Assembly: GCA_019235885.1 (NCBI GenBank)
Contig: JAFAKB010000023.1
Location: 1 to 62,559 of the forward strand
DNA length: 62,559 nucleotides
Reading direction: 5' to 3'
Source: Candidatus Eremiobacterota bacterium
Lineage (GTDB): Bacteria > Vulcanimicrobiota > Vulcanimicrobiia > Vulcanimicrobiales > Vulcanimicrobiaceae
Shown one piece after another: positions 1 to 12,990 of this stretch (positions are counted from its first letter, which is position 1; each line of letters begins with the position of its first letter). The notes beneath the pieces were generated by a model that saw nothing but the letters and a program-made list of their open reading frames with translations, ran no database searches and was not told the origin of the DNA. The translations under genes were made by a program, and so were the position numbers.

Positions 1-933
1 GACTAAAATCACTTCCTCGATTTGCGACACGTCGAGCTTTGCATCGGCGATCGCGTTTTTGAACGGTTGTACGCAGCGATCGGTCAGATCGCTCGTCAGC
101 TCTTCGAATTTCGAACGCGTGAGCGTATATTCGAGGTGCTTCGGTCCGTTTTGATCGGCGGTGATGAACGGAAGGTTGATACTCGTTTGAACGACGCTCG
201 AAAGCTCGACTTTCGCTTTTTCCGCCGCCTCGCTCAAACGCTGCAGCGCTTGCCGGTCCTTGCTCAGATCGATGCCTTGATCTTTGCGAAATTCATCGAC
301 GATCCAATCGACGATGCGTTTATCGTAATCGTCGCCGCCGAGGTGCGTGTCGCCGTTGGTCGATTTGACTTCGAAGACGCCGTCGCCGACTTCGAGGATC
401 GAGACGTCGAACGTCCCGCCGCCGAGGTCCCACACGAGGATCGTCTCGTTGCCTTTCTTGTCGAGCCCGTACGCCAGCGCGGCGGCCGTCGGCTCGTTGA
501 TGATGCGCAAGACTTCGAGGCCGGCGATCTTGCCGGCGTCCTTCGTCGCCTGCCGCTGCGCGTCGTTGAAGTACGCCGGCACGGTGACGACTGCTTTCGT
601 GACCCGCTCGCCGAGGTACGAAGAAGCGTCGTTGACGAGCTTCTGCAGGATCATCGAGCTGATCTCTTGCGGCGTGTAATCCTTGCCGTCGATCTTGACC
701 TTGTGATCGGTCCCCATCTCGCGCTTGATCGAGCTGATCGTGCGGTCCGGGTTGGTGACGGCCTGGCGCTTCGCAAGCTGACCGACGAGCCGTTCGCCGG
801 TCTTCGTGAACGCCACGACCGAAGGAGTCGTTCTCGATCCTTCGGAGTTGGCGATGACGGTCGGGCTCTGCCCTTCCATCACGGCGACGACCGAATTGGT
901 CGTGCCGAGGTCGATTCCGACCACTTTTGCCAT
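1..933 (-). CDS. dnaK: Chaperone DnaK (Hsp70), N-terminal part, runs off the window
   Basis: Reading the minus strand from the ATG at 933 gives an uninterrupted 311-residue frame beginning [14 protein letters not shown], the phosphate-1 signature of Hsp70 ATPases. Further family blocks follow: a [11 protein letters not shown]-type segment, [14 protein letters not shown], and [12 protein letters not shown]. The frame leaves the window at IEEVILV, just before the usual VGGxTRMP block, so about half of a ~620-residue protein is present, essentially the nucleotide-binding domain. DnaK is the cytoplasmic ATP-dependent folding chaperone working with DnaJ and GrpE. Neither partner is visible, and they could lie beyond the left edge. 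The long plus-strand frame over this stretch is a codon-bias shadow. Confidence 0.97.
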
Positions 934-1359: not shown

Positions 1360-1536
1360 ATGAAGCGTTTCGTATTAATCACCGCGCTCAGTATTGGCGC
1401 GATCCTTGGGGCTGCTGGGGCAGCAATGGCAGATATCGTCCAGTGCGACGCCTCGCAGGGCGAATACCCGTGTACCCTGTGCATTCCGAGTAACGGAGGC
1501 GTATGGTGTCACGAGGGCTGCTGCACGGAGGCCTGA
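1360..1536 (+). CDS. Small secreted cysteine-rich peptide (58 aa)
   Basis: The ATG at 1360 has a strong GAGGGG site nine bases upstream and opens a 58-codon frame ending TGA at 1536. The first ~24 residues form a classical Sec signal peptide: MKRF, a hydrophobic ITALSIGAILGAAGAA stretch, and AMA before the likely cleavage site. The predicted mature part is only ~34 residues but carries six cysteines (positions 29, 38, 41, 50, 54, 55) including CTLC and GCC motifs. An even number of cysteines in an exported peptide suggests disulfides or metal/cofactor binding. The thioredoxin-like gene begins 16 bases downstream, suggesting a functional pair. I do not recognise the family; a bacteriocin-like or redox peptide is possible. 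Confidence 0.6.
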   Translation: MKRFVLITALSIGAILGAAGAAMADIVQCDASQGEYPCTLCIPSNGGVWCHEGCCTEA

Positions 1537-1552
1537 CCGCGGGCCTTCTTGC

Positions 1553-2209
1553 ATGAATGGTGGGCGGGTCAGGGACTATCTGGCTCGCTCAGCTTACTGT
1601 TATGGCAGATTTCTCAATGAAAAAAAACCTCGTTGGCTGTGGTTCGGTTTCCTGTATGGAATCGCACTAAGCGCAGTGTGCGCCTTTGTATTTTGGGCGG
1701 TGCTTTCGTTCTTACCGCATCCAATGCGCCGGCCTCTAGCACCGCCATTGGTGGTAGGGACCTCAGTTCCTGATGTTATGTTCCATACGAGCCGCGGTAA
1801 GTACGCTCTGGGGCGCGGCCAGCAACCGCTCGTGCTGGAAGTGTTCGCTACGTGGTGCGAGAATTGTCAAGCCGAAGTCGGAGCGCTAAACTTGCTCTAC
1901 CGAAAATATCGCTCTAAGGTCGACTTCTTGGCGGTCACTGGCAGTAAGGTCGCGAGCAACCAGAAATCACCGGAAGACGATGCCGATGTGTTGAGCTTCG
2001 CAAAGGTGCATAACGTCATGTATCCGGTCGCGATGGATGCCGACCGGGTAGTAGCATCGAAGCTGCAGGTCGTCGGCTTTCCCGCAATATTCATGATCGA
2101 CAGGCAGCACAAAGTCGTCTATCAGATTTACGGGCGGACTCCGTTCGACGAGCTAGACTCGGCGGTCAAGGCACACCTCGAGACCGCGCCCATCACATCT
2201 CAAAACTGA
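1553..2209 (+). CDS. Membrane-anchored thioredoxin-like (TlpA/ResA-type) protein
   Basis: This frame encodes about 218 residues: a short polar N-terminus, one transmembrane segment near residues 30-52 (WFGFLYGIALSAVCAFVFWA), then a thioredoxin fold facing outside. The active-site motif is FATWCENCQAE near residue 103, with the cis-proline region VVGFPAIFMID near 180. TlpA/ResA proteins reduce or form disulfides in exported proteins, for example during cytochrome c or metal-site assembly. It follows the Cys-rich peptide gene by 16 bases, so that peptide is the obvious candidate substrate. I chose the ATG at 1553 because the longer upstream frame overlaps the peptide gene. No good Shine-Dalgarno is seen, so translational coupling is possible. 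Confidence 0.8.
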   Translation: MNGGRVRDYLARSAYCYGRFLNEKKPRWLWFGFLYGIALSAVCAFVFWAVLSFLPHPMRRPLAPPLVVGTSVPDVMFHTSRGKYALGRGQQPLVLEVFATWCENCQAEVGALNLLYRKYRSKVDFLAVTGSKVASNQKSPEDDADVLSFAKVHNVMYPVAMDADRVVASKLQVVGFPAIFMIDRQHKVVYQIYGRTPFDELDSAVKAHLETAPITSQN

Positions 2210-2774
2210 TGATCGAAGCCAGCGAACGAAGCAACTGCCTGCGCCTCGTTCGCTGGCGGAACGATGCCGATCGGCCGCAGCTCACCAAGCGCGTCTTGCG
2301 GGTTGCCTTTGAAGCCGTGCCGCCATAGGCGTAAGACCACTCGGTCGCGCGATTTCATCGTACTACCATCGTAGAGATGCACTCGCCGATGTCTTAACGG
2401 TCGCCGTCGATCGCTTGAACGTCGGGCCGGCGGCGACGGCCGCTGGCGCTGCGTCGGGAACATCTGCCCGCGAGGCCGCCCGACTCACGGTAACGCAACT
2501 GCGGGCGAATGCTGACTGAGACGACGCAGACGCCGAGGAAAGCCTTTGCCGGTGCGCGTTGTGTTGGCGTTGATAGTCTTATTGTGAGTTTTTGAGCACC
2601 GGCTTCTGCAGCAAACCCGGAGGGGTGAACTAAGACACATCAACGGTCGAGAATCCCGCTTATCGAAGGTGGTTCCTTCGCCGGATCGCGTCATGCGAGC
2701 GGTGCAAGTTACAGACGAAAGAAGAGCGCCGGCTAAACCGTGGCGCCCTTCGCTCGTCCACAGACGGGTCTTCG
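2210..2774. other. Intergenic region, no convincing gene
   Basis: This is about 565 bases between the thioredoxin-like gene and the convergent htrA-like gene. Short minus-strand frames exist (2200-2463 and 2485-2694) but show no recognisable domain, signal peptide or convincing start. Composition is mixed and somewhat lower in GC than the core genes. It may hold decayed sequence. Confidence 0.4.
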
Positions 2775-4007
2775 TTACGGCTGCGGCTGCTGCTGTTGGA
2801 GGTAGAGGTCCGCCGGCTGCTCGCCCAATTTAATCTGGACGTTTCTCTTCGCCCCCTGGCTCCAGACGCGCATCGAGACGGTCTGTCCGGGTTTACTCCC
2901 CTTGATCACGTTCGTCACATCGGCGGGCTGGTTCACCGGCTTGCCGTTGATCGTTTGGATCACGTCGCCCGGCTCGAGTCCGGCCTTGTCCGCAGCCTGA
3001 CCACTCTGCACCTGCTGCACGACGGCACCGCCCTGGTCGTTATAACCGATCTGGGTGCGGACGCTGTCGTCGACAGGCTTCATCAAGATCCCAAGATAGC
3101 CGACGCCGGTGCCGGTACCGTTTGCGTTGACCGTCTGCCCCGGGGCCTTTGCGAGGGCAACCGCCGTTTGGGTGATTGTGGCGGACGGGATCGCAAAGCC
3201 GATGCCTTGCGCGGACGCTGGGTTCGCGGTCGACTGGTTCATCCCCATCACGCGGCCGTCGTAGTCGATCAGCGGGCCGCCGGAGTTGCCCGGGTTGATC
3301 GGGGCAGAGGTCTGGAGGAGCCCCTTGAAGAGATGCACTTGCTGGTCGTCACCTTGGATCGGCTCGTCGCGGTTGAAGCCCGAGACGACGCCGACGGTCA
3401 CCGAGCGCTGGAGACCCTGCGGCTCGCCGATCGCGATCGCCCACTGGCCCGCCTGGACCTTAGAGCTGTCGACGAACTGAACCGGCGGCGGAAGCTTCGC
3501 GTACCCGTCGACCTTGACGAGCGCCACGTCGGCGCCGGGGTTCGAGGAGAAGAGGTGTCCCGGGACGCGGTCACCGTTCGCAAAGATCACCACGATCTTG
3601 GACGTGCCCTTGGGAACGACGTGCGCGTTGGTCAGGATCAAGCCTTCGCGCGAGTACACGAAGCCCGACCCGGAGGCGCGCTCGACGACGTTGCGGCGCT
3701 GGTACGGCGAGGCGCTGCCGCCGAAGAACTGCGAGAACGGATCCGCTGGCACGTAGATCGAGCCGTTGACGGTGACTTCGAGCGCGACGACCGACGGCTC
3801 GACGCGCTTGACGGCGTTCACGATGCGGTCCTGGTCGGTCGTGCCGCCGGCGACGAGCGGGGCGGCTTGGACAGCGGGCGGCGTGTTGCCGGGGCCGGCG
3901 ACGCCGGCGAAGTGCGTGCTCGCGTAGAGCATCATCGAGAAGCTCCCGATGATCGCGCCGATCAGCCCGACGACGGCCATTCCGAAGATGCTGGTACGAG
4001 ACGTCAC
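2775..4007 (-). CDS. HtrA/DegP-type serine protease with PDZ domain
   Basis: The 410-residue product has one N-terminal membrane anchor (IFGMAVVGLIGAIIGSFSMM), a trypsin-like domain and a C-terminal PDZ domain. The catalytic triad is visible: His in LTNAHVV (near residue 130), Asp in GADVALVKV (near 160), and Ser in NPGNSGGPL (near 243). The PDZ core QAADKAGLEPGDVIQTING is followed by a DVTNVIKGSKPGQTV segment. These proteases degrade or refold damaged envelope proteins. It starts at GTG 4007 and lies 91 bases downstream of the efflux ATPase gene on the same strand, so it could be a distal member or have its own promoter. A single PDZ suggests a DegS/HhoB-like layout. Confidence 0.95.
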   Translation of the reverse strand: MTSRTSIFGMAVVGLIGAIIGSFSMMLYASTHFAGVAGPGNTPPAVQAAPLVAGGTTDQDRIVNAVKRVEPSVVALEVTVNGSIYVPADPFSQFFGGSASPYQRRNVVERASGSGFVYSREGLILTNAHVVPKGTSKIVVIFANGDRVPGHLFSSNPGADVALVKVDGYAKLPPPVQFVDSSKVQAGQWAIAIGEPQGLQRSVTVGVVSGFNRDEPIQGDDQQVHLFKGLLQTSAPINPGNSGGPLIDYDGRVMGMNQSTANPASAQGIGFAIPSATITQTAVALAKAPGQTVNANGTGTGVGYLGILMKPVDDSVRTQIGYNDQGGAVVQQVQSGQAADKAGLEPGDVIQTINGKPVNQPADVTNVIKGSKPGQTVSMRVWSQGAKRNVQIKLGEQPADLYLQQQQPQP

Positions 4008-4098: not shown

Positions 4099-4800
4099 TT
4101 AACCTCGCGCGGTCGGCTGGTCGTCGACGATCCGGCCGTCGCGCAGCCGGATGATCCGCCGGGCGTGGCCGGCGACGTCCTCGTCGTGGGTGACCATGAT
4201 GATCGTTCGGCCGCCGGCGTTCAAGCTCTCGAACAGCCCCATGATCTCTTCGCTGGTCTGCGAGTCCAAATTCCCGGTCGGCTCGTCGGCGAGCAGGACG
4301 GCCGGATCGTTGACCAGCGCGCGCGCGATGGCGACGCGTTGCTGCTGGCCGCCGGAGAGCTCGCTGGGTTTGTGATCCATCCGGTCGCCGAGGCCTACTT
4401 CGGTCAGCCGCCCCGAGGCCTGCTCGTTGCGCGCGCGCGACCCGACGCCGGCGTAGAACAGTGGCAAGGCGACGTTTTTGAGCGCGCTCGTGCGCGCCAG
4501 CAGGTTGAAGCCTTGAAAGACGAAGCCCAGCTTCTTGAGCCTGATCGCGGCGAGCTGATCGTCGTTGAGGGTCGAGACGTCGGTGCCGTCGAGCAAATAG
4601 CGTCCCGACGTCGGGCGGTCCAGACAGCCGAGCAGGTTCATCAGCGTCGACTTGCCGGAGCCCGAGGGCCCCATGATCGCGACGTACTCGCCGCGCTCGA
4701 TCGAGAACGTCACGCCGCGCAGCGCCTCGACCTTCACGTCGCCGAGCGAGTAGGTCTTGGTCACGGCGAACACGTCGATCGCGCGCTGCGCGTCATTCAT
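4099..4800 (-). CDS. ABC transporter ATPase, MacB/LolD family
   Basis: This 233-residue nucleotide-binding subunit shows Walker [10 protein letters not shown] (near residue 44), Q-loop VFQGFNLL, signature LSGGQQQR, Walker [14 protein letters not shown] and the switch histidine in [10 protein letters not shown]. It is the standard length for LolD/MacB-type ATPases. It closes an operon read right to left: its ATG at 4800 overlaps the end of the preceding permease gene by 8 bases. It should power the two FtsX-type permeases upstream for export or mechanotransmission across the periplasm. Confidence 0.95.
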
Positions 4801-5992
4801 ACCGGAGCGCCTCGATAGGATCCAGCGTGGCCGCGCGCCACGCCGGGTAGGTGCCGAACGCGACGGTCACGACGGTGGTGAAGATCGTCGCGATCAAGAT
4901 GCTGCGCAGCCACGGGATCGGTGCGACGACACCGGAGAACTTCACGATCACCAGGTCGTTGACGAGCGCGCCGATCGTGACGCCGAGAACGAGCCCCACC
5001 AGACAGCCGAAGCCCGAGAGCGCCAGCGCTTCGATGAAGAACTGCAGCAGCACCTGAAAGCGCGTCGCGCCGATCGCTTTGCGCAGCCCGATCTCGCGCG
5101 TGCGCTCCGCCACGCTCACCAGCATGATGTTCAGGATCCCGATCCCGGCGACCAGCAGCGAAACCGCCCCGATCAGCGCGACGACGAACGTGATCACGGT
5201 GAAGACGCCGTCGACGCCTTTGCTGAACGCCTTGCGGTCGAAGGTCTGATAGTCGATGTGCGCGCCTTTGAGGTTGCGCAGCCAATTCACCGTGTCCGCT
5301 TCCGTCTGCTCCGTTTTCGACGGATCGTCCATCAGGAACCGCGCGAACGGCACGGAGTCGCCTCGCACGAAGAACCGCTCGAACGTCGTGTACGGGATCG
5401 TGACACCGAGGTTGAAGTTGAGCGGCAGGATTCCGGCTTTGTCGCTGCCCAGCACGCCGACGATCGTAAACCTTCGGTCACCGACGCGGATCGAGCTCCC
5501 CGTCGGGTCACCCACCATTCCGAACTTCGCGTAGGCCTGGTCGGAGAGGACGCAGACGGAACGTTCTTGCGCGATGTCGTCCTCGCTGAGCTTGCGGCCG
5601 TAGCGCAGCGGCGTCGAGGTGGCGAACCGCTCGTCGGCGGCCGGCCCAAAGGTGATGCGGCGCTGCGCGTGAGCGTACGACGCGACCACGCGCTGACCCG
5701 CGGCCGGCATCGCGCCGACGATGTTCGGGATCTCGTCCTTGGCGCGCTGCAAGTCGGCGAGCCGGATCGTCGCGCGGCCGAAATTCGCCTGCTGGCTCGG
5801 AAAAACGACGAAGGTCCGTTCGCTGATCGCGCCCAGGATGCCGCCGACCGCGCCGGCCATTCCGGCGCCCAGGACCTGGATCGCGATCACCGCGGTGACG
5901 CCGATGATCAGCCCGAGCACGGTCAGGATGCTGCGGATTCGATTCGCCGCGAGGACCGAGACCGCTTCGAGAAGATATTGCGTCGGGTTCAT
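4793..5992 (-). CDS. MacB-type ABC permease (FtsX domain), first copy
   Basis: The 399-residue protein has the MacB architecture: N-terminal transmembrane helix ([19 protein letters not shown]), a large periplasmic MacB_PCD domain, then three C-terminal helices with the FtsX motif containing [15 protein letters not shown]. Unlike E. coli MacB, the ATPase is a separate gene (just downstream). It is clearly paralogous to the adjacent permease at 6003-7196 but diverged in the periplasmic part, which implies a heterodimeric transporter. Confidence 0.93.
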
Positions 5993-6002
5993 CGCGCCGG
6001 CC

Positions 6003-7196
6003 TCACGTGCGAAGCGCCGCGATCGGATCCATCCGCGAGGCGCGAATCGCCGGATAGGTTCCGAACACGCAGCCGACGACCATCGAGAAGCCGACCGCGA
6101 TCGACATCACCAGCAGCCACGGGATCGGCGCCTCCCCGACGAACGACTTGACCGCCGCATAGCCGCCGACCGTCGCCACGAACCCGATCGCCATCCCCAA
6201 GCCGCCGCCGATCAGCGAGAGCAGGACCGCCTCGAGCAAGAACTGCAGCGCGACGTCCGCGCGCCGCGCGCCGATCGCTTTCCGCAAACCGATCTCGCGC
6301 GTCCGCTCGGTGACGGAGACGAGCATGATGTTCATCACGCCGATCCCGGCGACCAGCAGCGAGACGCCGCCGATCGCCGCGAGGCCGACGCCGATGACGC
6401 CGAGCGCCGCGCTGAACGAGCCGAGCTGGGCCGTCGTGTCCTGCGTGATGTAGGCCGCGCGCGGCCCGTGCAGCCGGCGCAGGACCGCGTCGATCGCGTC
6501 CGACGCGTCGCTGACGCTCACGCCGGCGGCGGGGTACACGGTCAGGCTGTCGACCGGCCCCGGAACGATCTGGTGAAACGTCGTGTACGGGATGAGCGCG
6601 AAGTCGCTCGCGCCGATCGAGCTGAAGAGGCTGCTCTTGAGCTCGCTGTACTCGCCTACGACCGTGCAGCGCATCGGACCGAGGTCGATCACCTCGCCGA
6701 TGGGGTTCGCGTCCTTGAACAGCTTCGCGGCGAGCTCGGCGGTGAGGAGGCACACGTGGGCGCCGGAGGTCACGTCGCCGTCCTGCATTTTGCGCCCGGC
6801 CGCGATCGTCGACGCGTACTGCGAGTGCGGGCTCGCCGAGGCGACGGTCGTCGTCGCTTTCTTGCCGTTCCAGCGCAGCGTGTAGGTGCGCTGGTAGGAA
6901 GGCTCGACGTACGAGAGCATCGATCCGAGGTCGGTCGCGATCGCGCGTACGTCGCGGTACTGGATCGCGGCCGACCGCGGGTCGTCCTGATTGGGATCGG
7001 AGGCGATCGTGATCCCCGGATCGCCGAGCGTGTTCAGGGTCGAGGTGATCCCGTTCGACGCCGCTTTGCTCACGCCGAGGACGGTGATGATCGACGACGT
7101 GCCGATGATCATCCCGAGCATCGTCAGGATGGAGCGCGTGCGGTTGCGCCAGATCGCGGAGAACGCCTCCGCGAGGTAGGCGCCGAGACGGCTCAC
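6003..7196 (-). CDS. MacB-type ABC permease (FtsX domain), second copy
   Basis: This 397-residue permease has the same layout as its neighbour: TM1 (RSILTMLGMIIGTSSIITV), a periplasmic domain of about 220 residues, and three C-terminal helices with GIGVMNIMLVSVTERTREIG. It begins with GTG at 7196, overlapping the adaptor stop codon (GTGA). It ends ten bases before the first permease gene. Together the two permeases and one ATPase look like an asymmetric tripartite exporter with the HlyD adaptor and TolC. Confidence 0.93.
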   Translation of the reverse strand: MSRLGAYLAEAFSAIWRNRTRSILTMLGMIIGTSSIITVLGVSKAASNGITSTLNTLGDPGITIASDPNQDDPRSAAIQYRDVRAIATDLGSMLSYVEPSYQRTYTLRWNGKKATTTVASASPHSQYASTIAAGRKMQDGDVTSGAHVCLLTAELAAKLFKDANPIGEVIDLGPMRCTVVGEYSELKSSLFSSIGASDFALIPYTTFHQIVPGPVDSLTVYPAAGVSVSDASDAIDAVLRRLHGPRAAYITQDTTAQLGSFSAALGVIGVGLAAIGGVSLLVAGIGVMNIMLVSVTERTREIGLRKAIGARRADVALQFLLEAVLLSLIGGGLGMAIGFVATVGGYAAVKSFVGEAPIPWLLVMSIAVGFSMVVGCVFGTYPAIRASRMDPIAALRT

Positions 7197-8737
7197 TGGC
7201 CCGGCGTCGGGCCGGCCGACGGCGCGCTGGTGGGCTTGACCGCGATCCCTGGAAGAATCCCGACGTTGCGGTCGGAGACGACGACCTCGCCCGGCTTGAC
7301 GCCCGAGCGAACGACGCTCTGCGCGTCGTTCGTGGTGCCGAGCCGAACGCTGCGCTTGGTGGTGCGGCCCTTGTCGACGACGAGCACGAACGGCTTTCCG
7401 TTCGGATCGCGGCGGATCGCGTCGGACGGCAGCGCAAGGACGTGCGCGCGGTCGTCGGTGACGATGTCGACGTCGACGCTCATGCCGTCGCGCAGGTACG
7501 GAACGGTCTTGTCCAGCGCGACGGTCGTCAGCACTTGCCGCGCGGTGTTCGAAGGGTCGTCGCTCTTCTGCGCGACCGCGCCGATCTGCGCGATGTGGCC
7601 GCGCAGCTTCGTCGAGCCGAGATCTTCGCCCGAGACGATCGCCGCCTCGCCGGGGCGCAGGTTCGCGACGTCCTGCTCGTCGACTTTGGTGCGCACGATG
7701 AAGCCGCCCTCGGTCGACATCGTGACGACGGCTTGTCCCGCGGTGACGGGGTCGCCGGGCTGCAGCGGACGGAGCGTGTCGCCGGTTTCGGTCGCGATCG
7801 TCTGGATCACGCCGGGGTAGGGCGCGACGACGCGCAGCCGCGCCACTTGGTCCGAGGCGTAGCGCCAGTCTTCGTACGCCTTCTGCGCGTCGGCCTGCGC
7901 CGCTTGGACGTCGCCGCTCTTGTCTTCGGCTGCGTTCGCGCGCGCGGCCGCCAGCGCCGCCTCTGCTTGCGCGACCGCGTCGCGGTCGGCGCGAACACGG
8001 TCCGCGAGGACCGGCGACTGCCGCGCGATCGCGGAGTACGTCTCGTTGCGGTCGCGCACGGCTTGGTCGTAAGCGACCTGCGCCTGCTGCAGCTTCGCGA
8101 CATCGGCGTCGAGCGTGGTCTTCGCGATGGCCTTCTGCGCGTACAGGTCGCGGTCGGCGTCGGCGATGCGGCGCGCCTCGCGCAGATCGGTGTCGCGCTG
8201 CGCGACGGTCGCGTCGGCGGCGGCGCGCTGCTGCGCGGCCGACGTTCCGCCGTAGCCCAGACCCGACTGCGCGCCGGCGCGCTGGTCTTGGATCGCCTGG
8301 CTGAGGTTGAAGCGCGCCTGTTCGAGGCTCGCCTGCGCTTGCACGACGGCCGAGCGGTTCTGCGCCGGCAGCGCGCTGTTCGTCGACTGGGCGGTGCGCG
8401 CGCGGCCTTGCGCCGCTTGGTAAGCGGCTTGCGCGGTCGCCGCCGCGTCGAGCAGCTGCGGGTTCGAGATCGTTGCGAGCAGCTGGCCCGCGGAGACGTG
8501 CTGGCCGGGATGAACGTAGATCTGGCCGACGTTGCCCGCGACCATCGCCGCCAGCGTCTGCGTCTGCGGCCGCTGCACGATCCCCGTCTCGGGCAGCTTC
8601 GTCTGAAAGCGCGTGTACGCGACGGTGACCGTGCGAACGGTGAGCGCATCGCCGTGCGGCCGTGCCAAGGCGGCGCCGAGGACGACGATCGCGAGCAAGC
8701 CGACGATCAGGATGATGACGTTGCGACGACGGTTCAC
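7193..8737 (-). CDS. HlyD/MacA-type periplasmic adaptor (membrane fusion protein)
   Basis: The 514-residue product has an N-terminal membrane anchor (VIILIVGLLAIVVLGAALA), a lipoyl/barrel-sandwich half (AAMVAGNVGQIYVHPGQHV), a long Ala/Gln/Arg-rich coiled-coil hairpin (about residues 90-290), then the returning lipoyl half and beta-barrel domains. Such adaptors bridge an inner-membrane pump to TolC. The hairpin is long and very Ala/Gln-rich compared with MacA, and the C-terminus is a Pro/Ser-rich tail. Start GTG at 8737 overlaps the tolC-like stop (GTGA). Confidence 0.93.
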   Translation of the reverse strand: MNRRRNVIILIVGLLAIVVLGAALARPHGDALTVRTVTVAYTRFQTKLPETGIVQRPQTQTLAAMVAGNVGQIYVHPGQHVSAGQLLATISNPQLLDAAATAQAAYQAAQGRARTAQSTNSALPAQNRSAVVQAQASLEQARFNLSQAIQDQRAGAQSGLGYGGTSAAQQRAAADATVAQRDTDLREARRIADADRDLYAQKAIAKTTLDADVAKLQQAQVAYDQAVRDRNETYSAIARQSPVLADRVRADRDAVAQAEAALAAARANAAEDKSGDVQAAQADAQKAYEDWRYASDQVARLRVVAPYPGVIQTIATETGDTLRPLQPGDPVTAGQAVVTMSTEGGFIVRTKVDEQDVANLRPGEAAIVSGEDLGSTKLRGHIAQIGAVAQKSDDPSNTARQVLTTVALDKTVPYLRDGMSVDVDIVTDDRAHVLALPSDAIRRDPNGKPFVLVVDKGRTTKRSVRLGTTNDAQSVVRSGVKPGEVVVSDRNVGILPGIAVKPTSAPSAGPTPGQ

Positions 8738-10146
8738 GGGGCCCCCGCTTCCACGATGGCGATCGGATCGGCGACGCCGACCGAGGAGCGCAAGTGCACG
8801 AGCGCGTTGAGGTAGTTGACGCGCGCGACGACCAGGTCGTTCGCGGCCGAAAGCGCGCTCTGCTGCGCGGCGGCGGCGTCGGTCAGCGAGATCAAGCCGT
8901 TGCGGTACTGCAATTGTGCGATCCGCGCCGACTCGGCCCCCAAGCGCTCCGCCTCGCGCGACGTCACGACCACCGCGTTCGTCGTCTGCACCGCGCGCAA
9001 CGCCTGCCGGACGTCGACCTCGACCTGCGACTGCGTCGAGGCGAGCGTCCCTTCGGCGGCATCGAGCTCCGCGTGCGCGGCGCGGTGCAGCGCGCGCCGC
9101 GCGCCGTACTCGACGAACGGCAAGGTGAAGGTCGAGGTCGCGCCGATCTGCCAGAATCCCGGCCGGTTGACCGTCGTCCCGGGGATCACGCCGAAGCCGG
9201 GGATCACTTGCGCCGCGGTCGTGCGCGTCGTCGGCGTCTCGGTGTTGCCGAACGAGCCGGTGAGCTGAATCTGCGGCCGGCGGTCGGACTCGATCGCGGC
9301 GTCGGCGAGCCGCGCGACGGCGACCTGCGCGCGCGCGCTCGCGACGTCGGCGCGCGCGCCCAGCGCCGCTGCGACGAGCGCGTCGAGCGGCGTCTGCGGC
9401 AGCGGCGGCTCGGGGAGCGCGGCCGGGAGCGCGAACGCCGTGTCGGGCGGCGCGCCGATCCGCTGCGCGAGCGACTCGCGCGCGTTCGCCTCGCTCGCGC
9501 GCGCGGTAGTCAGATTGGCTTCGCTGCGCAGCTCGTTGACCTGCGCGCGCAGCACGTCGACGCCCGCGACGCGTCCGACGCGCTCCTGAGCGCGGGCCGC
9601 GTCGAGGAGCTGCTGCTGGTATGCGCGATCGCCTTCGTTCAGGCGCACGGCTTCACGCTGCTGCACGACGTTGTACCAGGCGGCGGCGACGTCGGTCGCG
9701 AGCTGCTGCTCGGCGCGCCGCAGGTCGCTGCGCGAGGCCTCCGCTTGGCGCTTCGCCTGCTGCGCTTGGATCTGGCCGAGCGAGCCGGTGTAGAGGTTCC
9801 ACGTCGAGCCGACCTGGGCGACGTTCTGCGAGAAGACTTGCGCTTGCGAAAGCCCGAACTGCGAGAACGAGCCGCCGTTGTTGCCGTTCGTCTTCGCCAT
9901 CTGGTTCTGCAGCGTTCCGGCGAGCGTCGGAAACTCGGCGGCGTGGTCTTTGGCGTAGGTCGCCTCGTTCTGCGCCAGCGTCGCGCGGCGGTTCAGCACC
10001 GCCGGATCGTGGTCGAGCGCGTAGCGCACGGCGGCGCGCAGATCGAGCGGCCTCGGCGGCGGGGTGGGTCCGGAACTCTGCGCGAGCGCGGGCGCGCCGA
10101 ACAGGGCGACCGCCACCAGCGCGGCGCCGGCGATGAGCGAGCGCAC
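8734..10146 (-). CDS. TolC-family outer-membrane efflux protein
   Basis: From GTG at 10146 the frame gives 470 residues with a signal peptide (VRSLIAGAALVAVALFGAPALAQ), then the duplicated outer-membrane efflux repeat, starting DLRAAVRYALDHDPAVLNRRATLAQNEA-like and containing long Ala/Gln-rich helices. TolC trimers form the outer-membrane channel of tripartite pumps. I chose this start because the frame upstream of it is antisense-like sequence inside the Yip1 gene; the GTG lies two bases after that gene's stop. An outer-membrane channel implies a diderm organism. Confidence 0.93.
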   Translation of the reverse strand: MRSLIAGAALVAVALFGAPALAQSSGPTPPPRPLDLRAAVRYALDHDPAVLNRRATLAQNEATYAKDHAAEFPTLAGTLQNQMAKTNGNNGGSFSQFGLSQAQVFSQNVAQVGSTWNLYTGSLGQIQAQQAKRQAEASRSDLRRAEQQLATDVAAAWYNVVQQREAVRLNEGDRAYQQQLLDAARAQERVGRVAGVDVLRAQVNELRSEANLTTARASEANARESLAQRIGAPPDTAFALPAALPEPPLPQTPLDALVAAALGARADVASARAQVAVARLADAAIESDRRPQIQLTGSFGNTETPTTRTTAAQVIPGFGVIPGTTVNRPGFWQIGATSTFTLPFVEYGARRALHRAAHAELDAAEGTLASTQSQVEVDVRQALRAVQTTNAVVVTSREAERLGAESARIAQLQYRNGLISLTDAAAAQQSALSAANDLVVARVNYLNALVHLRSSVGVADPIAIVEAGAP

Positions 10147-11295: not shown

Positions 11296-12990
11296 TTGAA
11301 CCCCGACACCTTCGTGATCCCGGCTCCGCCCGGCGAGCCCTACCTGCGCGTCGTCCCGCTCGGCGGCTGCGGCGAGATCGGCCGCAACATGACGATCGTC
11401 GAGACGAACGACGACCTGGTCGTCGTCGACTGCGGCCTGATGTTTCCCGACGAAGAGATGTTCGGGGTCGACATCGTCATCAACGACTTCACCTCCCTGC
11501 GCGAGCGGGAAGAAAAGTTTCGCGCGCTGCTCGTCACCCACGGGCACGAAGACCATATCGGCGGAATCCCGTACCTGCTGCGCGACTTCCCGAAGATTCC
11601 GGTCGTCGGGACGCCGCTCTCGCTGGCGCTGATCCGCGCAAAGCTCAAAGAGCACAAGCCCGGCGAGTGGAACGCGCGCGAGGTCGAGCCCGGCGACCGC
11701 GTGCAGTACGGCCGGATTGAGACGCAGTTCGTCCACATCAACCACTCGCTGGCCGGCGCGTGCGCGCTGGCGATTCGCACCCCGCTCGGGACCGTGTTCC
11801 ACACCGGCGACTTCAAGTTCGACCAGACGCCGATCGACGGCGACCCGGCCGACTTCGCCTCGATCGCGAAAGTCGGCGACGAGGGCGTGCTGGTGATGCT
11901 CTCCGACTCGACGAACTCCGAGCGCCCGGGCCACACGCTTTCGGAGCGTATCGTGGGCGAAGCGTTCTCGAACATCTTCGCGCGCGCGAAAGGCCGGCTG
12001 ATCGTCACCTCGTTCGCCTCCAACGTGCCGCGCATCCAGCAGGTCGTCGACCAGTCGAAGCGCTACGGCCGCAAGGTCGCCTTTCTCGGGCGCTCGCTGC
12101 AGAACGTCGTGCAGTACGCGCGCCAGCTGGGCTACCTCGACATCCCCGAAGGGCTCGTGATCCGGCTCGAGGACGTCGACGAGCATCCGCCCGAGCAGAT
12201 CTGCGTGATGACGACCGGCTCGCAAGGCGAGCCGATGTCGGCGCTCACCCGGCTCTCGGTGCGCGACCACAAGCACTTCAAGATCGTCCCCGGCGACACG
12301 GTCGTCATCTCCGCGACGCCGATCCCCGGCAACGAGAAAGCCGTCTCGCGCACGATCAACAACCTCTACCGCTTGGGCGCGCACGTGATCCACGGCAGCA
12401 GCGGAAACGCGCACGTCAGCGGCCACGCCTCGCAAGAAGAGCTGCTGCTGATGCTGAACCTCGTGCGGCCGCGGTACTTCATCCCGGTCCACGGCGAGTA
12501 CCGGATGCTGGTGATGCACGGGCGGCTCGCGCAGCAGACCGGGGTCGCGGGCGACAACGTCTTCATCGCCGAGAACGGCGACGTGCTGGAGTTCACCAAG
12601 GAGAGCGCCGAGAAAGTCGGCCGCACCTACGGCGGAAACGTGATGGTCGACGGGAGCGGCGTCGGCGACGTCGGCGAAGCCGTGCTGCGCGACCGCAAGC
12701 ACCTCGCCGGCGACGGGATCATGATGGTGGTGGTGACCGTCGACGCGGAAGAAGCGCGCGTCGTCGCCGGGCCGGACTTGATCTCGCGCGGCGTCTTCTA
12801 CCTGCCGGAGTCGGGCGAGCTGGTTGACGAGCTCAAAGCGAAGCTCACCGCGATCCTGCAAGACTGCAGCGTCGAAGGGATCCGCGACATCGGCAACGTC
12901 AAAGAGCACATCCGCTCGGGCCTCTCCAAGGCGGTATTCGAGAAGTCGAGACGCCGGCCGATCGTGATCCCCGTCGTGATGGAGGTTTGA
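11296..12990 (+). CDS. rnj: Ribonuclease J
   Basis: The TTG at 11296, six bases after an AGGA site, gives a 564-residue protein matching RNase J length. It starts with the metallo-beta-lactamase fold (RVVPLGGCGEIGRNM), has the zinc motif VTHGHEDHIGGIPYLL near residue 77, the beta-CASP region, HVSGHASQEEL near 375 and PVHGEYRML near 400, and a C-terminal domain. RNase J is a 5'-3' exo/endonuclease for mRNA turnover and rRNA maturation. The upstream in-frame extension (from 11101) overlaps the divergent small gene and is rejected. Hairpins follow the stop codon. Confidence 0.96.
   Translation: MNPDTFVIPAPPGEPYLRVVPLGGCGEIGRNMTIVETNDDLVVVDCGLMFPDEEMFGVDIVINDFTSLREREEKFRALLVTHGHEDHIGGIPYLLRDFPKIPVVGTPLSLALIRAKLKEHKPGEWNAREVEPGDRVQYGRIETQFVHINHSLAGACALAIRTPLGTVFHTGDFKFDQTPIDGDPADFASIAKVGDEGVLVMLSDSTNSERPGHTLSERIVGEAFSNIFARAKGRLIVTSFASNVPRIQQVVDQSKRYGRKVAFLGRSLQNVVQYARQLGYLDIPEGLVIRLEDVDEHPPEQICVMTTGSQGEPMSALTRLSVRDHKHFKIVPGDTVVISATPIPGNEKAVSRTINNLYRLGAHVIHGSSGNAHVSGHASQEELLLMLNLVRPRYFIPVHGEYRMLVMHGRLAQQTGVAGDNVFIAENGDVLEFTKESAEKVGRTYGGNVMVDGSGVGDVGEAVLRDRKHLAGDGIMMVVVTVDAEEARVVAGPDLISRGVFYLPESGELVDELKAKLTAILQDCSVEGIRDIGNVKEHIRSGLSKAVFEKSRRRPIVIPVVMEV

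What the first reader, a model, noticed from the sequence alone, without database searches (positions are those of the whole stretch)
1360..2209. Secreted six-cysteine peptide paired with a dedicated thioredoxin-like protein
The 58-aa peptide has a Sec signal and a 34-residue mature part with six Cys including CTLC and GCC. A TlpA/ResA-type protein with WCENC follows after 16 bases. Pairs of Cys-rich exported peptides and thiol enzymes are known in toxin-like peptides and cofactor-holding subunits, but I recognise none here.
Basis: partly seen in the sequence, partly recalled or inferred. Interest (0 to 1): 0.65.

Follow-up and report, generated by a model that had tools for sequence, protein, structure and literature searches.

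The report
Mobile cysteine-peptide and thioredoxin gene pair
A bacterium carries a small exported peptide with six cysteines next to its own thiol-handling enzyme; a cousin carries the same pair on what looks like a mobile stretch of DNA, with the peptide doubled and fast changing, which looks like a toxin-type peptide system but is untested.

Summary
The window encodes a 58-aa Sec-type peptide (1360-1536, six Cys) and, 16 bases later, a membrane-tethered ResA/TlpA-like protein with WCENC (1553-2209). Relatives have dnaK and htrA side by side without the pair. One other genome of the genus (G008) carries a second version elsewhere: a WCEIC TlpA followed by two tandem six-Cys peptides, within a 7.8-kb stretch bounded by tRNA-Asn and a 50-bp copy of its end. 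The two TlpAs form a clade apart from 29 WCPHC relatives. In 149 genomes of the phylum a signal-plus-cysteine pattern finds these three peptides and one hit with an internal stop. The tandem copies keep leader, signal and all six Cys, while the loops changed heavily (21 of 78 bases against 2 of 72). Best reading: a rare, horizontally moving cassette for a Sec-exported, probably disulfide-bonded peptide plus its own thiol oxidoreductase; most likely toxin- or bacteriocin-like. Pairing is well supported; oxidised state, release from the cell and activity are inferred. The peptides match no family in Pfam or PHROGs.

The parts
1360..1536 (+). six-cysteine exported peptide, 58 aa (signal 1-24, mature 25-58)
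1553..2209 (+). membrane-tethered TlpA/ResA-like thiol oxidoreductase, 218 aa, WCENC, VGFP loop
1130..2209 (.). approximate inserted segment: dnaK leader homology to relatives ends near 1130; G+C 56.0% against 66.8% for the window
2218..2257 (.). 15-bp inverted repeat just after the TlpA stop; possible transcript end, no T run
1..933 (-). 5' part of dnaK; left flank, syntenic in relatives that lack the pair
2775..4007 (-). htrA/degP-like protease; right flank, syntenic in relatives that lack the pair

Best explanation
A rare two-part accessory cassette. The peptide is exported by the Sec pathway, its signal removed, and its six cysteines handled in the periplasm by the TlpA-like protein made from the same cassette, so that a small disulfide-locked peptide results. 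The loops between the cysteines are free, or driven, to change, as in toxin-like or bacteriocin-like peptides, and I think antagonism of other cells is the likeliest role. Shown: gene pair, its recurrence at a second unrelated site, island context there, conserved cysteines with fast-changing loops. Inferred: signal cleavage, disulfide state, that TlpA acts on the peptide and in which direction, passage through the outer membrane, biological activity.
For: Second pair in G008 with the same Cys order, found beside a TlpA relative. A strict peptide pattern in 149 phylum genomes returns this peptide, the two G008 peptides, and one frame with a stop. FATWCExC pattern: 6 of 99 family genomes, 4 of them WCEPC in other proteins, 2 = these. 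The two TlpAs form a clade, 98/95 support; seven residues shared against the 29 others. Gene order and place differ (peptide-TlpA between dnaK and htrA; TlpA-peptide-peptide beside tRNA-Asn), so linkage outlasted rearrangement. G008 island: tRNA-Asn 11490-11565, exact 50-bp repeat at 3648, integrase domain at about 3298-3531 just outside it; homology to relative G004 stops at the tRNA end. Tandem copies: 59 of 60 upstream bases alike, signal 2 of 72 changed, mature 21 of 78 changed (p 2e-5 against signal), all six Cys kept, 19 nonsynonymous to 2 synonymous. Low G+C of both cassettes, lowest 1.5% and 1.6% of windows in the local background used.
Against: No immunity gene or dedicated exporter is visible in either cassette. 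The mature peptides are acidic (net charge -5, -2, -1), unlike most cationic antimicrobial peptides. Excess of nonsynonymous change rests on one pair of copies and weakens to P 0.009-0.040 without the last two codons. Only two genomes. VKOR and DsbB models find nothing in 11 of 11 genus genomes, so what would re-oxidise a TlpA-type oxidase is unknown. P0001 alone does not find the G008 peptides by BLAST. The G008 TlpA is a long branch; holding it with the general TlpA clade of its genus is not rejected (p 0.094), while for the window TlpA it is (p 0.009).
Confidence: 0.45

Rival explanations
1. Periplasmic metal- or redox-buffering peptide: the six thiols bind copper, zinc or another metal (or take electrons), and the TlpA-like protein keeps them reduced, as ResA-type proteins keep other thiols reduced.
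For: CxxC and CC motifs; nearest solved relatives of the TlpA profile are ResA and DsbE/CcmG, usually reductants (role recalled); VKOR and DsbB not found in the genus.
Against: Loops change fast while the Cys stay; Met and His are few (one Met and at most one His per mature part); sporadic, island-borne; no metal transporter or regulator recognised in either cassette.
Confidence: 0.2
2. Small cysteine-rich subunit or ligand of a surface protein: in G008 the cassette follows, by 52 bases, a large TonB-receptor-like barrel protein, and the peptide could be its partner or cargo.
For: TonB-like protein with a weak CarboxypepD_reg match at L101:5328-8624 directly ahead of TlpA; a weak third case in G007 has a TonB-like protein, a CxxC lipoprotein-like frame and a Cys-rich exported ORF.
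Against: No such gene beside the pair in the window; the G004 relative of it (41% identical) has neither peptide nor TlpA recognised in the 11.3 kb fetched, nor have five of the six more remote ones fetched; thioredoxin fold of the G007 lipoprotein not shown.
Confidence: 0.15
3. Two unrelated things: a chance small ORF, or a short exported peptide of other use, that lies beside a TlpA gene by accident.
For: BLAST of the peptide alone finds nothing significant in 60 genomes; no transcript data.
Against: Signal identity 12 of 24 with G008 peptide 1 (P 5e-6 to 9e-4 by shuffling), same Cys layout (P about 0.02-0.03 for random placement), the same TlpA clade next door in both, Shine-Dalgarno-like AGGGG, no unrelated hit of the detector in 86 TlpA-related loci.
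Confidence: 0.1

Closest known systems
Sublancin operon (sunA-sunT-bdbA-sunS-bdbB) of Bacillus subtilis, on prophage SPbeta
   Same: Disulfide-bonded secreted peptide encoded with its own thiol-disulfide oxidoreductase on mobile DNA (passages of PMC6391423).
   Different: Sublancin has a leader removed by its own transporter SunT, is glycosylated and has an immunity gene (same passages); none of these is seen here, and the peptide here has a Sec-type signal and six Cys.
Pediocin PA-1 with accessory protein PedC
   Same: Small disulfide peptide plus a putative thiol-disulfide oxidoreductase that raises potency (abstract of PMC4919988).
   Different: Gram-positive, cationic, not Sec-exported in its natural host (recalled); no sequence relation tested.
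E. coli heat-stable enterotoxin II with DsbA and MacAB-TolC
   Same: Sec export, periplasmic disulfide formation, then outer-membrane exit by MacAB-TolC (figure legend in PMC5985334); a MacAB-TolC-like set lies next to htrA in the window. An analogy of route only.
   Different: No sequence relation claimed or tested; no specific tie to the exporter, whose ATPase gene stays in relatives that lack the pair; general rather than dedicated oxidase.
ResA / TlpA / DsbE (CcmG) thiol oxidoreductases
   Same: The second protein belongs to this fold family by sequence.
   Different: CENC/CEIC in place of the CEPC of ResA (recalled) or the local CPHC; tied to a peptide.

Membership tests
TlpA/ResA-like thiol-disulfide oxidoreductases | Redoxin/AhpC-TSA domain above Pfam cut-off | tested here: met
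   45.8 and 45.5 bits against cut-offs 26 and 26.6
TlpA/ResA-like thiol-disulfide oxidoreductases | WCxxC active site and cis-Pro loop | tested here: met
   WCENC and VGFP in window 1553-2209; W101, C102, C105 and P177 invariant in alignment A2
TlpA/ResA-like thiol-disulfide oxidoreductases | membership of a named NCBIfam family such as ResA, DsbE or TlpA | tested here: not met
   best 54.6 bits against cut-off 170
Bacteriocins (disulfide-bonded) | match to a described bacteriocin family | tested here: not met
   no family for the peptides in Pfam or PHROGs and none for P0001 in NCBIfam; the G008 peptides were not run against NCBIfam
Bacteriocins (disulfide-bonded) | immunity gene and dedicated exporter | tested here: inconclusive
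   none recognised next to either pair; unknown types cannot be excluded
Bacteriocins (disulfide-bonded) | growth inhibition of other bacteria | not testable with these tools
   needs pure oxidised peptide
Defensin-like or knottin-like peptides | known fold or disulfide map | tested here: inconclusive
   AlphaFold2 gives a hairpin, mature part about pLDDT 83, from 3 rows; Foldseek finds no solved structure at E <= 0.001

The most novel reading that the evidence does not exclude
A new family of Sec-exported, disulfide-locked antagonistic peptides of a little-studied diderm lineage, carried on moving cassettes with a private TlpA-type protein that either matures the peptide or, by reducing it, protects the maker; tandem copies diversify under positive selection as venom and defensin peptides do.
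Probability: 0.35. Interest if true: 0.68.

Novelty: new variant of a known kind. Interest (0 to 1): 0.52.

Why it matters
Disulfide-bonded peptides with a private thiol enzyme are known mainly from Gram-positive bacteria (recalled, and the cases read here). A Sec-routed version with fast-changing loops in a poorly known diderm lineage would be a source of small, stable peptides, and a clean test of whether a TlpA-type protein can act as a dedicated peptide oxidase or as a reductive self-protection factor.

Tried and rejected
BLAST of the peptide in 60 relatives and scans of genome and viral contigs found no relative; one search confirms only against the window peptide, which is too far from the G008 ones, so it could hardly have found their kin. 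Plasmid and phage searches were empty, each with one peptide only. The 271-aa exported ORF that L112 carries between htrA and dnaK left no remnant in the window. The MacAB-TolC-like neighbours were considered as a dedicated exporter and set aside, because the ATPase gene stays next to htrA in relatives without the pair. The pattern had too narrow a gap to return the window peptide; it found the two G008 peptides among its hits and I did not translate the others one by one. The G007 cluster (L173) was followed as a third case, but Pfam, NCBIfam, hhalign (E 0.028, probability 1.8) and AlphaFold2 (pLDDT 35) do not show a thioredoxin fold. Literature searches for TlpA with a cysteine-rich bacteriocin, and for cysteine-rich defensin-like peptides on bacterial genomic islands, held no paper; the search for hypervariable cysteine-rich peptides held one, on mussels.

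Full report
What is there. No Pfam, NCBIfam or PHROGs family matches the window peptide. The second protein is ResA/TlpA-like but below every NCBIfam cut-off; the nearest solved structures for the profile of six such proteins are ResA and others of the DsbE kind.

The site. dnaK lies on the left and an htrA-like protease on the right. In six of the relatives fetched both genes are present side by side (L109-L114). Two of these have about 300 bases between them (L110, L114) and four about 1.1 kb; in L109 and L112, and less clearly in L111, this holds a frame of its own of roughly 220-280 aa, and in L113 I could not decide on a frame. None has the peptide or the TlpA. DNA similarity to the relatives runs about 195 bases upstream of dnaK and stops near window 1130. 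The segment 1131-2210 has 56.0% G+C against 66.8% for the window; 1.5% of 3074 windows of that size are as low. So the pair is an insertion at this site, or was lost from the others; the composition favours insertion.

A second pair. I looked beside the TlpA relatives of the family. Of 30 TlpA loci first fetched (L032-L061; L032 is the window's own), one more, L054 in genome G008 of the same genus, has six-Cys exported peptides: two in tandem downstream of TlpA. They share 12 and 11 of 24 signal residues with the window peptide (shuffling P 5e-6 to 9e-3, depending on the copy and on how many first residues are held fixed) and the layout C..CxxC..C..CC, with spacings 6-2-4-6-0 against 8-2-8-3-0. 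A mechanical detector of exported Cys-rich mini-ORFs over 86 TlpA-related loci (436 kb, overlaps included) returned only these three peptides; in 22 control loci it returned only the window peptide again, in a stretch that overlaps it. A strict DNA pattern over 149 genomes of the phylum returned the three and one hit whose frame has a stop. A profile of the three over 99 family genomes gave the three and then nothing better than E 0.003.

The two TlpAs belong together. In a tree of 31 sequences the window TlpA and the G008 TlpA (WCEIC) form a clade, 98/95, apart from 29 WCPHC sequences that include a paralogue in the window's own genome. They share seven residues against the rest, including the Glu in the active site. 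Holding the window TlpA with the general TlpAs of its genus is rejected (p 0.009); for the G008 TlpA, a long branch, it is not (p 0.094). A FATWCExC pattern hits 6 of 99 family genomes: four are WCEPC proteins beside which I recognised no such peptide, two are these. Presence of this TlpA type and of the peptide thus agree in 99 of 99 genomes (2 both, 97 neither; Fisher 2e-4), with the caution that the G008 peptides were first noticed through their TlpA, that the patterns were drawn from the known members, and that many of the genomes are incomplete.

The G008 cassette lies on an island. Order: TonB-receptor-like protein (L101:5328-8624), TlpA (8677-9243), peptide 1 (9620-9772), peptide 2 (9942-10097), then tRNA-Asn (11490-11565, minus strand). 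The tRNA end is repeated exactly over 50 bases at 3648, and a phage-integrase domain (about 3298-3531) lies just outside that repeat. A close relative, G004, matches G008 at 95% for 6.7 kb on the other side and the match stops at the tRNA end. The integrase lies outside the repeat pair, so which element moved the cassette is open.

Fast loops, fixed cysteines. The tandem copies are alike in 59 of 60 bases upstream; the signal differs in 2 of 72 bases and the mature part in 21 of 78 (p 2e-5). All six cysteines stay. In the mature part 19 differences are nonsynonymous and 2 synonymous (dN 0.40, dS 0.13). Against random change with cysteines kept, P is 0.002-0.013 depending on the transition rate; without that condition 0.013-0.052; without the last two codons, where the copies differ in length, 0.009-0.040. 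So a faster mature part is firm, positive selection is suggested, and both rest on one pair of genes.

Mechanism. Most likely: Sec export, cleavage, then thiol handling by the tethered TlpA in the periplasm, giving a small disulfide-locked peptide. Whether TlpA oxidises, shuffles or reduces is not known. VKOR and DsbB models find nothing in 11 of 11 genus genomes (they ring in 3 and 6 of 14 control genomes), so the usual re-oxidising partner is not recognised, which leaves room for the reductase reading. In the G008 peptides the first Cys follows the signal directly (ASA-C), so lipidation there cannot be excluded; the window peptide has no such site. Passage through the outer membrane is open; a MacAB-TolC-like set lies beyond htrA, and E. 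coli enterotoxin II is known to leave that way after DsbA acts (legend in PMC5985334), but the ATPase gene is kept next to htrA in relatives without the pair. AlphaFold2 with three rows gives a hairpin for the mature part (pLDDT about 83) and Foldseek no match at E <= 0.001.

Comparison with the known. It works like peptide systems with a private thiol enzyme, such as sublancin with BdbB on a prophage (passages of PMC6391423) and pediocin with PedC (abstract and outline of PMC4919988). It is not shown to be a bacteriocin: no family match, no immunity gene recognised, no activity data. I therefore call it a new variant of a known kind. I searched for print on TlpA with a cysteine-rich bacteriocin, on Eremiobacterota bacteriocins (that the lineage is of this sort is my guess from recall, no call named it), on bacteriocins with thiol-disulfide oxidoreductases, on defensin-like bacterial peptides and on hypervariable cysteine-rich bacterial peptides; among the listed titles and abstract beginnings, and in passages of PMC9259500, I saw nothing that describes this family.

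What I would not claim. Two genomes are a small base. 'Secreted' means Sec-exported. The toxin-like role is the reading I think likeliest (about 0.45), ahead of metal or redox buffering (0.2), a partner of a surface barrel (0.15) and accident (0.1).

Noticed in passing
L173:3610-8201 (G007): A TonB-like protein with CarboxypepD_reg and Plug domains, a 288-aa lipoprotein-like frame with CAGC directly upstream in the same direction, and a divergent exported Cys-rich 86-aa frame (7941-8201). It might be a third, remote version of such a cluster; the thioredoxin fold of the lipoprotein could not be shown.
   Followed up: partly
window 2366-2600: Short stretches resemble parts of the htrA gene (direct repeats with 3322-3342 and 3369-3396, and a 77-base match to the htrA region of L114), as if a decayed piece of htrA lay between the pair and htrA.
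   Followed up: no
window 4099-10119, minus strand: MacB-like ATPase, two MacB-like permeases, an RND/HlyD-type adaptor and a TolC-like protein in a row next to htrA.
   Followed up: partly
L101:10180-11156 (G008): Frames after the peptides read, by eye, like pieces of a secretin-type N domain in different frames, perhaps a decayed gene on the island; not tested except that one piece has no Pfam match.
   Followed up: no
L109:2873-3715, L112:3495-4310: Some relatives carry at the htrA-dnaK site an exported 271-280-aa protein; the L112 copy has no Pfam match. The site is variable in gene content.
   Followed up: partly
L033-L061 except L054, and L102: The general TlpA of this family carries WCPHC, with the dipeptide of DsbA (recalled), in a lineage where VKOR and DsbB models find nothing in 11 of 11 genus genomes; how it is re-oxidised is unclear.
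   Followed up: no
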